Of a stretch of 29,958 nt of DNA, positions 24,309 through 28,729 are shown in pieces. The translations under genes were made by a program, and so were the position numbers. The DNA is taken from positions 1-29,958 of the IMG/VR virus record IMGVR_UViG_3300047510_000436; one strand, 5' to 3'. Position 1 is the first letter of the stretch. Every line of letters begins with the position of its first letter. This stretch comes from a virus. Under the pieces are notes generated by a model. It searched no databases, was not told the origin of the DNA, and saw only the letters and a program-made list of their open reading frames with translations.

Positions 24309-24628
24309 GCGATGAGCTTGGCCAACTTGGCCATAGTGTTGATGCAACCCAAAGCAATGTGTAGCTGACCAGCCTTACGGGCTTCCATGTGCAGCGTGCT
24401 GGTTTGGCTTAGCAAATCGGCCAGCATTTGTGTTGTGTCATGCGCCCAATCTTCCCGTATTTGTTCACGCGCAAGCTTGAGGTATTTGTCGATTGAACGC
24501 TCTGTAACCCCCCACGTCTCAGTACCGTATCGAACGCAATCAGACCGTTTTCCGCCGTTGGCGATGATGCGAGCAAGGCGACTGGCGCGGTATTGAACCT
24601 CAGCTTTTGTGCTTTCTTTGGCGGCCAT
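24305..24628 (-). CDS. terS: Terminase small subunit
   Basis: 107 aa. The N-terminal half (RASRLARIIANGGKRSDCVRYGTETWGVTERSIDKYLKLA) contains a helix-turn-helix of the kind seen in small terminase subunits, and the C-terminal half is helical for oligomerisation. It should recognise viral DNA and load the large subunit. The start shares bases with the stop of the methyltransferase (TAATG) and the end overlaps terL by 4 bases, so the three genes are coupled. Assignment rests on the HTH and on position. Confidence 0.78.
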   Translation of the reverse strand: MAAKESTKAEVQYRASRLARIIANGGKRSDCVRYGTETWGVTERSIDKYLKLAREQIREDWAHDTTQMLADLLSQTSTLHMEARKAGQLHIALGCINTMAKLAKLIA

Positions 24629-25875
24629 TAGATGTCATCCTGAGTGGCAAAGTGATTAGCCGGGGGAGGACAGACAGCAGCGAAGTGCGCCTCTGAAGGC
24701 TGGCAAATGGCGGTGTTGCCCGTAAAATCTTCCCAGCGCTTGACGATCACGTCGCAGTAGGCGGGGGACAGCTCCATGCCGTAACAGGCTCGGCGGGTTT
24801 GTTCACAGGCAATAAGGGTAGAGCCAGAGCCTAGAAAGAGGTCTAGGACGGTTTTAGGGTCGCCATAATTTTCAAAGCACCATTCGGCGAGGGCGACTGG
24901 TTTTTGTGTGGGGTGAACACGCTTCTGTCCCCGCTCAGACGCTTTAAGCATCCCGTTCCACATGTGCTTGAAGATGCGAACGGCTGTGTCTTGATTTGTC
25001 CAGGCGAGTTCAGCGTCAGCAAAATTACCTGTGTTTTCCTTATCCCAAACAATCCAACATGAGCTGTTGGGTAAAGCATTGGCGTAATAGTTACCTCCCC
25101 AAATGACTTGAGTTTTGGAGCCAAGGGTTTTGATCAGCTCGATTGCATCTAGAGCAGTTTCAATTGAATCGTCACCAGCAACTGGCGCATAAAAACCCGC
25201 CTTAACGACGTTGCTGCCGCCAACAGAGCCAAAAGGTTTTGAGCCTCCTACAGAATTGCCGCTGACAATGCTTATGCCGTAGGGAGGGTCGGTGTAGACC
25301 ATCTCAGGTGTCACGCCATCCATCAGCCGTTTGACGTGCTGAATGTTGGTGCTGTCGCCGCAGAGCAGGCGGTGATTGCCGAGTATCCAAAGGTCACCAG
25401 GCTTGGTGATCGGGTCTGCTGGTGGTTCGGGCGACTCCTCAGGGTCGGTATTGCCTTCTACGGGGTCAAGTTTTTCGACCTGCTCCAGAAGCGCCTCAAC
25501 GTCGTCGTCTTGAAACCACGGGGCGATGTCGTGCTCTTGGCTGAGCTGCTGCAACATTTCCGCGTCCCATTCGGCTAGGTCAGCGGTGCGGTTATCGGCA
25601 AGGGCAAGGCCGACCTTTTGATCTTCGGTAAGGCCGGTGCGGCGAACGGCAATCAGCTCATCGGGTGCAGCGTCGATGATGCGTAGGCCATCGATGCCAA
25701 TGCTGATGGCGGCTTCAACGGTGCCGTTACCGGCAAGGATGCGGTTTTCTTCGTCAATGACGATGGAGCGGGCGGGCCCGTAGCGCTGAAGGGACTCCTG
25801 AAGGAGGGATGCGGACGTCTGGGTGCGCTTGCGGGCGTTTTTGTGATCTTGCTTTAGGTCTGACAGCGTAGCCAT
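24628..25875 (-). CDS. ParB-like nuclease domain fused to DNA methyltransferase
   Basis: 415 aa from the ATG at 25875; a TTG at 25920 would add 15 residues that look non-coding. Residues 1-110 are a ParB/Srx-like domain (GPARSIVIDEENRILAGNGTVEA near 33-55, then ADNRTADL). Residues 155-385 are a beta-class amino-methyltransferase: catalytic TDPPYG at 195-200, HPTQKP at 321-326 and the SAM-binding DLFLGSGST at 345-353. Such proteins methylate adenine-N6 or cytosine-N4. Many phages place this fusion beside the terminase. No partner restriction enzyme is seen, so self-protection or marking of DNA is likely. Target site is unknown. Confidence 0.9.
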   Translation of the reverse strand: MATLSDLKQDHKNARKRTQTSASLLQESLQRYGPARSIVIDEENRILAGNGTVEAAISIGIDGLRIIDAAPDELIAVRRTGLTEDQKVGLALADNRTADLAEWDAEMLQQLSQEHDIAPWFQDDDVEALLEQVEKLDPVEGNTDPEESPEPPADPITKPGDLWILGNHRLLCGDSTNIQHVKRLMDGVTPEMVYTDPPYGISIVSGNSVGGSKPFGSVGGSNVVKAGFYAPVAGDDSIETALDAIELIKTLGSKTQVIWGGNYYANALPNSSCWIVWDKENTGNFADAELAWTNQDTAVRIFKHMWNGMLKASERGQKRVHPTQKPVALAEWCFENYGDPKTVLDLFLGSGSTLIACEQTRRACYGMELSPAYCDVIVKRWEDFTGNTAICQPSEAHFAAVCPPPANHFATQDDI

Positions 25876-25916
25876 CAGGCGTCTCTGAATGATGTTGAGA
25901 GTGTATAGGGATTCGG

Positions 25917-25969
25917 TCAATAACGCACGCTATTGAGTCGCAGGTTGCGACACGTTGGACAGTATTGAG
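25917..25969. promoter_or_regulatory. Divergent control region with repeats
   Basis: The 206-base gap between the two divergent transcription units holds several ordered elements. TCAATA (25917-25922) and TATTGA (25931-25936) form an inverted pair with an 8-base spacer. TATTGAG recurs at 25931-25937 and 25963-25969. Between these lies the dyad GTCGCA-GGT-TGCGAC (25937-25951). This looks like a regulator binding cluster, or possibly a replication origin, but no binding protein is identified. Confidence 0.5.
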
Positions 25970-27086: not shown

Positions 27087-27884
27087 ATGGATTCAACTAT
27101 GACAGCAACGCTGACCACAGCGCCGGAAATGAACGAGCAGGAAGCTCGGCAGGCGGTCGATGACATCAAGCGCGGGATTAACACCGTTCGCGCTCGCATT
27201 TATGACTTGGACCAGCGCAAAGGCTGGAAGGCGCTTGGTTATCGCAGCTTTACCGCCTGCTGCATGGAGGAGTTTCCAGAGCTACATGAGCGGACCATCC
27301 GCAAGCAGTTGCACGCTGCTCAAGTCGAAGAAGCGTTGAAGCGAGAGTTAGGCCCATCTGGGCCTAAGAAGATCGGCGAAATCCCCGAAGCCCATCTACG
27401 CCCGCTGGTCTCCGTCAAAAACGACGACGAAATTCTTGTTGCCGCTTACACCAAAGCTCAAGAAATCGCCAACAATGAGAATCAAGGCAGGCTTACGGAA
27501 TCAATCGTTACTCGCGCTGTTGATCAGGTTCGGCCTGAATATGAGTGGTCAGAATCTGAACTTGACCGCCGAGTGATCGTTGAAAAGGGTGGCACTGTTG
27601 TCGCCAATATGCACCAAGAGACAGATCGGGCTCTAATTCATTGGGCGAAAACAACCGGTCGTTTTGCTCGCATTGACCGAAATAGCGATTGGGGCAATCC
27701 TTTTGAGATGCCTAGCGACGGCGACAGGGATACGGTTTGTGATTCCTATGAAATCTTCTTCCCGCGCAAATTTAGTCTTCACAATCGACTTGATGAATTG
27801 AAGGGAAAAGTTCTTGGCTGCTGGTGTTATCCGCAACGCTGTCACGGAGACTATTTGACAAGCAAGATCAATGAAGAGTTTTGA
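27087..27884 (+). CDS. ParB-HTH-like protein fused to a DUF4326 domain
   Basis: 265 aa from the ATG at 27087; the frame opens earlier but inside the previous gene. Residues 18-150 resemble the DNA-binding protein type found on plasmids and phages of cyanobacteria (RARIYDLDQRKGWKALGYRSF, then an HERTIRKQLHAAQVEEAL helix and EIPEAHLRPL). Residues 195-260 are a DUF4326 domain: DWGNPF at 201-206 and CWCYPQRCHGDYL at 245-257, with conserved Cys and His that could bind a metal or a base. DUF4326 is common in phages but its function is not established to my knowledge. The fusion suggests a DNA-directed activity. It overlaps the next gene by 14 bases. Confidence 0.75.
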   Translation: MDSTMTATLTTAPEMNEQEARQAVDDIKRGINTVRARIYDLDQRKGWKALGYRSFTACCMEEFPELHERTIRKQLHAAQVEEALKRELGPSGPKKIGEIPEAHLRPLVSVKNDDEILVAAYTKAQEIANNENQGRLTESIVTRAVDQVRPEYEWSESELDRRVIVEKGGTVVANMHQETDRALIHWAKTTGRFARIDRNSDWGNPFEMPSDGDRDTVCDSYEIFFPRKFSLHNRLDELKGKVLGCWCYPQRCHGDYLTSKINEEF

Positions 27885-28578
27885 AAGCTGTATCTGCATC
27901 GCCCAAGCGCGAATTATTGAGGGCAAGCGAAAGAAGGCTCATATTTGCACAATCGCTTTTCACCCGCCAACTGATTCATTTATTCGGATATGCCTGCCCT
28001 TCCAGCCGGGGAGGGAAACAGGCATTAGGCGATGGCATCAATTTTCATTTGCCGGAACTAGATCGCCTAATGACACTCGATTTGAAAGTTTCGAGTTTGG
28101 CGAGCTGATCAGTATTGATGGGCAACTGAAACATCAGGAACGCATTGCGATCCACAGAAAAATTCTTTCGCTTTACCGCTATGAATCAGAATTGAATGAA
28201 CTTAAGCAGTCAATCGGTCTGCTGATTCCAGAGCGCGGCTCTTTGCGATTTAGGCAGAAACCGCTAACGGAGCGAGAACAGGAGCATCGACAAATGATGC
28301 TTCAGAAAGGATTGTTTTTCCCAGATTACAAAATTCATGTCACGGGCAGAAGCGCGCAATTCAAAAACAGATTTGACAAACAATTAGTGCAATGGGATTT
28401 GTTTGAGGCAATTAGAAAAGGTGTTGACCCTTTCGTTGCCATAAACAGCTTTAAGGATCCCTATATCATTCTTGGGAATACCCCGTGGCGGCGGGATTCA
28501 TTTATGGCCATTTCAATTCTTTCTGCCCCGGCTGGCGCCAAGACTCACGCTCATCACCAACAACTGTCTTTAGTTTGA
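27871..28578 (+). CDS. Hypothetical protein coupled to the DUF4326 gene (235 aa)
   Basis: ATG at 27871, inside the end of the previous gene, to TGA at 28576-28578. The N-terminal half has IIEGKRKKAHICTIAF and FIRICLPFQPGRETGIRRWHQFSFAG, then HRKILSLYRYESELNELKQS; the C-terminal part has DPYIILGNTPWRRDSFMAIS. Several Cys, His and Arg clusters suggest a nucleic-acid or nucleotide-related role but no known motif is complete. It is visibly AT-richer (about 44% GC in 28141-28260) than the genes on either side, which suggests transfer. I do not recognise a family. Confidence 0.7.
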   Translation: MKSFESCICIAQARIIEGKRKKAHICTIAFHPPTDSFIRICLPFQPGRETGIRRWHQFSFAGTRSPNDTRFESFEFGELISIDGQLKHQERIAIHRKILSLYRYESELNELKQSIGLLIPERGSLRFRQKPLTEREQEHRQMMLQKGLFFPDYKIHVTGRSAQFKNRFDKQLVQWDLFEAIRKGVDPFVAINSFKDPYIILGNTPWRRDSFMAISILSAPAGAKTHAHHQQLSLV

Positions 28579-28579
28579 A

Positions 28580-28729
28580 ATGCCTTCAAATCTTCCTCGC
28601 TTGAACGTCGTTTTGCCACCTGAAATGCGTGAATGGCTTGAAACACAAAGACTTCCCTGCGAATCCACTGCAGCGGTGATCCGCCGAATCCTGCACGAAT
28701 ATATGAAAAGCCATGAAACAAGCGTTTGA
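28580..28729 (+). CDS. Ribbon-helix-helix-like protein (49 aa)
   Basis: ATG at 28580 directly follows the previous stop codon; TGA at 28727-28729. The layout is a beta strand (LPRLNVVLPPEM), helix A (REWLETQRL) and helix B (ESTAAVIRRILHEYMKSH), the pattern of CopG/Arc-type ribbon-helix-helix proteins. These bind DNA as dimers. A possible target is one of the promoter palindromes in this window, but no evidence links them. Confidence 0.7.
   Translation: MPSNLPRLNVVLPPEMREWLETQRLPCESTAAVIRRILHEYMKSHETSV

What the first reader, a model, noticed from the sequence alone, without database searches (positions are those of the whole stretch)
27087..28578. DUF4326 domain fused to a DNA-binding-like domain and coupled to a 235-aa unknown
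A ParB-HTH-like N-terminus joined to DUF4326 is an uncommon combination, and the next gene overlaps it by 14 bases, so the two products probably work together. DUF4326 has no established function. Its conserved WGNPF and CWC...CHGD residues suggest metal or base binding. A role in DNA modification or in countering host defence would fit an early operon. This is the best candidate here for an undescribed two-gene system.
Basis: inference. Interest (0 to 1): 0.6.

Follow-up and report, generated by a model that had tools for sequence, protein, structure and literature searches.

The report
Phage enzyme paired with DNA-binding partner
Two overlapping genes in a virus related to cyanobacterial phages encode a DNA-docking enzyme of unknown chemistry and a partner shaped like single-stranded-DNA-binding proteins, and the same partnership recurs in many phages and, with a similar-looking enzyme, in bacteria and an archaeal plasmid, where it is listed as an untested candidate antiviral defence.

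Summary
ORF1 (27087-27884, 265 aa) has a ParB-type helix-turn-helix region plus DUF4326; ORF2 (27871-28578, 235 aa) overlaps it by 14 bases. Both are under purifying selection. 73 other bacterial DUF4326 loci and 8 generic DUF488 loci have none.

ORF2 is not featureless. Its model (pLDDT 93.8) is a tandem OB fold, resembling RPA70-AB, LEF-3 and HIN domains. By profile it is homologous to PADLOC's PDC-M19B, half of an untested two-gene defence candidate whose other half is a DUF488 protein. Every bacterial ORF2 relative examined sits beside DUF488 or DUF4326, and a Haloquadratum plasmid has ORF2 followed by ParB_N-HTH-DUF488. The window pair is therefore the viral, DUF4326-based form of a widespread module: a DNA-docked Cys enzyme plus a tandem-OB partner.

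Most likely mechanism (inferred): ORF2 holds single-stranded DNA or DNA ends and DUF4326 acts on terminal sugar-phosphate or ADP-ribose-type groups, in phage recombination, defence or counter-defence. Reaction and direction are untested.

The parts
27087..27884 (+). ORF1, 265 aa: ParB-type helix-turn-helix N-terminal region (about residues 16-150), extension 'W..EL.RR..VE.GGTVVANM....DRALIHWA' (about 154-190), DUF4326 (194-258) with WGNPF and LGCWC.P..CHG motifs
27546..27881 (+). conserved C-terminal unit of ORF1 (extension plus DUF4326), the part shared by relatives whose N-terminal domains differ
27871..28578 (+). ORF2, 235 aa: predicted tandem OB-fold protein, remote homologue of PADLOC PDC-M19B; invariant across 49 relatives C26, R39, P43, G202, nearly so D68, R70, E72, N109, S114, N203
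27871..27884 (+). 14-base overlap of ORF1 and ORF2, consistent with translational coupling; same arrangement in L003 and L004

Best explanation
The pair is the viral form of a two-component nucleic-acid-processing module. ORF1 is a DNA-docking protein (ParB-type HTH) carrying a DUF4326 domain, probably a Cys-based enzyme. ORF2 is a tandem OB-fold, RPA/LEF-3-like single-strand-binding partner. Shown: gene identity, co-occurrence, swappable N-terminal domains, DUF488 standing in for DUF4326 with ORF2 retained, and remote homology of ORF2 to PDC-M19B. Predicted from models: OB folds and HTH. Inferred: ORF2 captures single-stranded DNA or DNA ends and presents them to DUF4326, which acts on terminal sugar-phosphate or ADP-ribose-type groups. 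In bacteria this would be a defence-type activity. In the phage, where it lies among replication and recombination genes, it would protect or process phage DNA ends or act against rival or host DNA.
For: 77 of 80 viral loci carry both genes, with 68 ORF2 genes beginning -10 to +14 nt from the end of ORF1. Cyanophage KBS-S-2A has the pair at 75% and 60% identity. Seven bacterial contigs carry the DUF4326 form. In all 28 bacterial genomes found with ORF2 profiles in four group surveys, ORF2 has DUF488 or DUF4326 beside it. Haloquadratum walsbyi plasmid PL100 has ORF2 followed by ParB_N-HTH_ParB-DUF488. ORF2 profile versus PDC-M19B-type profile: hhalign probability 99.7%, E 1.9e-25 over 230 columns; 29 of 49 members hit PDC-M19B directly. 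ORF2 model pLDDT 93.8; Foldseek hits are mostly OB-fold DNA binders; VIA gives RPA70-AB 1jmc Z 6.1, rmsd 4.5 A over 184 residues, and single OB domains at 2.0-2.8 A over residues 1-87. Published predictions link DUF4326 to the rhodanese-phosphatase superfamily, ADPr derivatives and DNA-acting partners (PMC9503650, PMC7824862); an archaeal ParB fusion with DUF488-HTH binds CTP (PMC12704722).
Against: No biochemistry was found for either protein. DALI-scale Z values for ORF2 are 5-6.5, a range that can reflect a common arrangement. The invariant polar residues of ORF2 (DxRxE, GN...R) are unusual for a plain single-strand-binding protein. DUF488-DUF4326 homology is not significant here (hhalign P 0.0025 and 0.017, probabilities 12% and 3%). 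Related cyanophages S-H1 and MED4-184 lack both genes, so the module is accessory. No complex could be modelled.
Confidence: 0.5

Rival explanations
1. Counter-defence: the phage pair undoes a host modification or lesion, for instance ADP-ribose on single-stranded DNA or nucleotide signals from NAD+-based immunity; ORF2 finds the single-stranded DNA and DUF4326 trims the ADP-ribose remnant.
For: DUF4326 is reported fused to Macro, NADAR and SLOG domains in viruses and predicted to process phosphates of ADPr derivatives (PMC9503650, PMC7824862). Mostly viral distribution of the DUF4326 form with ORF2.
Against: No Macro, NADAR or ART gene was noticed beside the pair in the loci read, though this was not searched systematically. 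The same ORF2 family sits in cellular genomes with DUF488 and is classed as candidate defence.
Confidence: 0.2
2. Phage-carried defence: the pair excludes competing phages, as the bacterial PDC-M19 form is suspected to do.
For: Remote homology of ORF2 to PDC-M19B; accessory distribution among cyanophages; one bacterial copy next to a ResIII-type helicase.
Against: No experimental test of PDC-M19 was found in the held library, and two other PDCs tested in a native host showed no activity (PMC12409345). The phage copies lie among replication genes, not in an isolated cargo spot.
Confidence: 0.2
3. Ordinary replication/recombination accessory: ORF2 is a phage single-strand-binding or annealing factor and ORF1 a DNA-bound regulator or end-processing factor, with no role in conflict.
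For: Neighbours include exonuclease, replication initiation, primase/helicase and Holliday junction resolvase families; L166 has a nuclease-like gene, a RecT-like gene and a canonical-looking SSB just upstream (read by eye from sequence).
Against: Coexists with a canonical-looking SSB in L166; partnership conserved in cellular genomes outside phage replication modules.
Confidence: 0.15

Closest known systems
PADLOC candidate defence system PDC-M19 (M19A = DUF488 protein, M19B)
   Same: M19B is homologous to ORF2; two adjacent genes; enzyme half has a C..(E/C)..CH motif and often an HTH or other N-terminal domain
   Different: Enzyme half is DUF488, not DUF4326; the window proteins themselves do not hit the PADLOC models; PDC-M19 is catalogued for cellular genomes, this is a phage
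DUF4326 (PF14216) proteins of jumbo phages and NCLDVs, predicted rhodanese-phosphatase-type ADPr phosphatases (PMC9503650, PMC7824862)
   Same: DUF4326 domain with WGNPF and CWC...CH motifs
   Different: Partner is a tandem-OB gene and a ParB-type DNA-binding fusion rather than Macro, NADAR or SLOG
Archaeal ParB-CTPase fusion with DUF488-HTH (PMC12704722)
   Same: ParB-type part joined to a candidate Cys enzyme; the Haloquadratum ParB_N-DUF488 protein follows an ORF2 homologue
   Different: Window ORF1 has no detectable ParB_N CTPase domain and uses DUF4326; whether the Haloquadratum protein is the one tested for CTP binding was not checked
RPA70 DBD-A/B, baculovirus LEF-3, telomere end-binding proteins, HIN domains
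   Same: Tandem OB arrangement of the ORF2 model
   Different: Sequence identity about 4-11%; ORF2 has family-specific invariant polar residues

Membership tests
DUF4326 (PF14216) | score above Pfam gathering threshold | tested here: met
   67.6 bits against cut-off 25
PDC-M19 (PADLOC) | M19B-family protein | tested here: inconclusive
   window ORF2 alone has no hit; 29 of 49 relatives hit PDLC04508; profile-profile E 1.9e-25
PDC-M19 (PADLOC) | M19A (DUF488) partner | tested here: not met
   ORF1 has DUF4326 and no DUF488 or M19A hit
PDC-M19 (PADLOC) | antiphage activity | not testable with these tools
   no experiment; no held paper mentions PDC-M19
ParB/Srx CTPase (ParB_N) proteins | ParB_N domain | tested here: not met
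   no Pfam hit in window ORF1, though related C-termini are fused to ParB_N-type domains elsewhere
ParB/Noc/KorB-type DNA-binding (HTH) domain | fold of the DNA-binding domain | tested here: inconclusive
   VIA Z 5.6-6.5 to 6s6h, 7nfu, 7bnk, 1r71 over 92-115 residues, below Raf1 at Z 10.1
Tandem OB-fold ssDNA-binding proteins (RPA/LEF-3 type) | two OB folds | tested here: inconclusive
   high-confidence model, OB proteins dominate the hits, but Z only 5-6.5
Tandem OB-fold ssDNA-binding proteins (RPA/LEF-3 type) | ssDNA binding | not testable with these tools
   needs a binding assay
Rhodanese-phosphatase superfamily | Cys-containing Rossmann-like fold shared with DUF488 | tested here: inconclusive
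   hhalign DUF4326 vs DUF488 P 0.0025 and 0.017 with the C...CH motif aligned; published assignment in PMC9503650

The most novel reading that the evidence does not exclude
A tandem-OB DNA sensor plus a DUF488/DUF4326 end-modifying enzyme is one host-virus conflict system spread over bacteria, archaea and phages. Phages carry a version with the enzyme exchanged (DUF4326 for DUF488), used against or in place of the host version.
Probability: 0.3. Interest if true: 0.8.

Novelty: new variant of a known kind. Interest (0 to 1): 0.6.

Why it matters
It gives DUF4326 and DUF488, both still named as domains of unknown function, a constant partner with a predicted fold, and links a catalogued but apparently untested defence candidate (PDC-M19) to a viral counterpart. 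That makes function testable: one binding assay, one interaction assay and one plaque assay would decide much. It also shows that the enzymatic half can be exchanged while the OB partner stays, which points to a shared substrate, probably DNA.

Tried and rejected
Pfam, NCBIfam, PHROGs and PADLOC on the window ORF2 alone: nothing significant; PDB sequence search with the ORF2 profile: nothing. tblastn of distant ORF2 members in the phage collection: no match, or only KBS-S-2A. First genome-contig scan with the ORF2 alignment: none confirmed; solved by scanning with the DUF4326 part and by profile searches of genomes. DUF488-DUF4326 homology by hhalign: suggestive only. Spt6 hits for DUF4326 in the PDB (E 0.04-0.3) judged chance. 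Idea that a DNA-binding fusion is strictly required for ORF2: rejected, L158 and L162 have ORF2 without an evident N-terminal DNA-binding domain. Idea that ORF2 simply replaces the phage SSB: weakened by a canonical-looking SSB in L166. A DOI look-up for a paper I recall on a RapZ-C-DUF488-DUF4326 clade failed because it is not held, so that resemblance stays memory only. A literature search for the screen behind the PDCs returned nothing relevant.

Full report
Observation. ORF1 (27087-27884) and ORF2 (27871-28578) are real, overlap by 14 bases and are read in the same direction. ORF1 has DUF4326 at residues 194-258 and matches phrog_464 over nearly its whole length. ORF2 alone has no significant match in Pfam, PHROGs, NCBIfam or PADLOC. 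Between the window and L003, dN/dS is 0.087/1.386 for ORF1 and 0.035/2.839 for ORF2, so both are translated and constrained. The window is an IMG/VR virus record with head and tail genes of a tailed phage. Its terminase is closest to cyanophages MED4-184, S-H1 and KBS-S-2A at 53-57% identity.

Co-occurrence. Cyanophage KBS-S-2A has the pair in the same order. IMG/VR contigs found by close ORF1 similarity also have ORF2 wherever the contig runs far enough. When only the C-terminal DUF4326 unit was used as query, the best 80 loci (down to about 44% identity) gave 77 with ORF2: 68 directly downstream, 5 with one gene between, 4 with ORF2 upstream. The exceptions L120, L124 and L156 carry short DUF4326 genes. 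The 80 include near-identical contigs, so they are not 80 independent cases, but they span several unrelated N-terminal domains: ParB_N-like, HTH types and others. In bacterial genomes, seven of the 80 best DUF4326 loci carry ORF2. The other 73, and eight loci of generic DUF488 genes, do not. So ORF2 implies the enzyme, but the enzyme does not imply ORF2.

Identity of ORF2. With 49 relatives the model is confident (pLDDT 93.8, pTM 0.90). Foldseek in the PDB lists mainly OB-fold DNA binders: RPA, Teb1, HIN domains, SSB and RecO. In the viral library the top hits are baculovirus LEF-3. VIA-align gives 1jmc (RPA70-AB) Z 6.1, rmsd 4.5 A, 184 residues, and single OB domains at 2.0-2.8 A over residues 1-87. 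Z under 8 is not proof of kinship, but the consistency across rows makes a tandem OB fold likely. The family has invariant C26, R39, P43 and G202 and near-invariant D68, R70, E72, N109, S114 and N203, which suggests a specific site beyond generic ssDNA binding.

The cellular counterpart. Profile searches in four bacterial groups found distant ORF2 relatives in roughly 2-3% of genomes. In all 28 genomes with a hit, a DUF488 gene (or DUF4326 in L262, L272, L285 and the G015 locus L160) lies beside ORF2, usually overlapping or within a few bases; in one genome (G337, L265) both genes are split over two reading frames. PADLOC names these PDC-M19A (DUF488) and PDC-M19B, a two-gene candidate defence system. 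PDCs come from a 'guilt-by-embedding' screen and are mostly untested (PMC12988326). Phage ORF2 and bacterial M19B are homologous: hhalign 97.7%, E 2.3e-12 without most intermediate sequences and 99.7%, E 1.9e-25 with them; 29 of 49 ORF2 relatives hit M19B directly. The Haloquadratum walsbyi plasmid PL100 bridges the two arms: its ORF2 homologue scores better with the phage profile (4e-48) than with the bacterial one (5e-19), yet is followed by ParB_N-HTH_ParB-DUF488. The one ORF2 homologue without a recognised partner is in Natronococcus, L238.

Mechanism. The DUF4326 motif L-G-C-W-C-x-P-x-x-C-H-G and the DUF488 motif L-x-C-x-E-...-C-H-R line up in hhalign, but the score is not significant. 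Published work places DUF4326 in the rhodanese-phosphatase superfamily and predicts action on terminal phosphates of ADPr derivatives (PMC9503650), and notes fusions to replication or R-M parts (PMC7824862). From memory only, a later classification joins RapZ-C, DUF488 and DUF4326 and predicts DNA-end processing; that paper is not held. Combining a DNA-docking domain, a likely Cys enzyme and a tandem-OB partner, the best reading is action on single-stranded DNA or DNA ends. In phages the genes lie among exonuclease, primase, helicase, replication-initiation and Holliday-resolvase genes (the window itself has replication-initiation and exonuclease matches); no control set was run, so this context is descriptive. 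The module is accessory: S-H1 and MED4-184 lack it. ORF2 diverges faster than ORF1 (for example L014: 85% vs 42%), and the two distance matrices correlate only moderately (r 0.52, or 0.35 without L030), which suggests exchange or diversifying pressure on ORF2.

Verdict. The two-gene unit is real and strongly linked, but it is not a wholly new kind: it is the viral DUF4326 variant of a catalogued, uncharacterised module. What this work adds is the tandem-OB assignment, the PDC-M19 link and the DUF488/DUF4326 exchange. Reaction, substrate and whether it attacks, protects or counters remain open.

Noticed in passing
window 28580-28729 (+): A 49-aa ORF directly after ORF2, MPSNLPRLNVVLPPEMREWLETQRLPCESTAAVIRRILHEYMKSHETSV, looks by eye like a ribbon-helix-helix DNA-binding protein; possibly an operon regulator.
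   Followed up: no
window 24628-25920 (-): ParB-like domain fused to an N6/N4 DNA methyltransferase (phrog_620 plus phrog_498, Pfam N6_N4_Mtase), a second ParB-type fusion in the same phage.
   Followed up: no
L253-L256, L258, L268, L273, L274: Bacterial DUF488 partners of the ORF2 family carry an N-terminal domain resembling DUF4065/SocA by eye, two of them with weak similarity to the DarG C-terminal region (E 0.005-0.05). This could link the module to toxin-antitoxin regulation.
   Followed up: partly
L238:5983-6756 (Natronococcus sp. AD-5 plasmid): An ORF2 homologue with no DUF488 or DUF4326 nearby; the next gene is an uncharacterised 115-aa protein.
   Followed up: no
L287:17129-17914 (cyanophage MED4-184): The related cyanophage has a queuine tRNA-ribosyltransferase-like gene and a DNA methylase next to its terminase, suggesting modified phage DNA.
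   Followed up: no
L072, L073: Profile hits to ORF2 were reported with one TAA inside the matched stretch, although the ORF there reads open over 237 codons.
   Followed up: no
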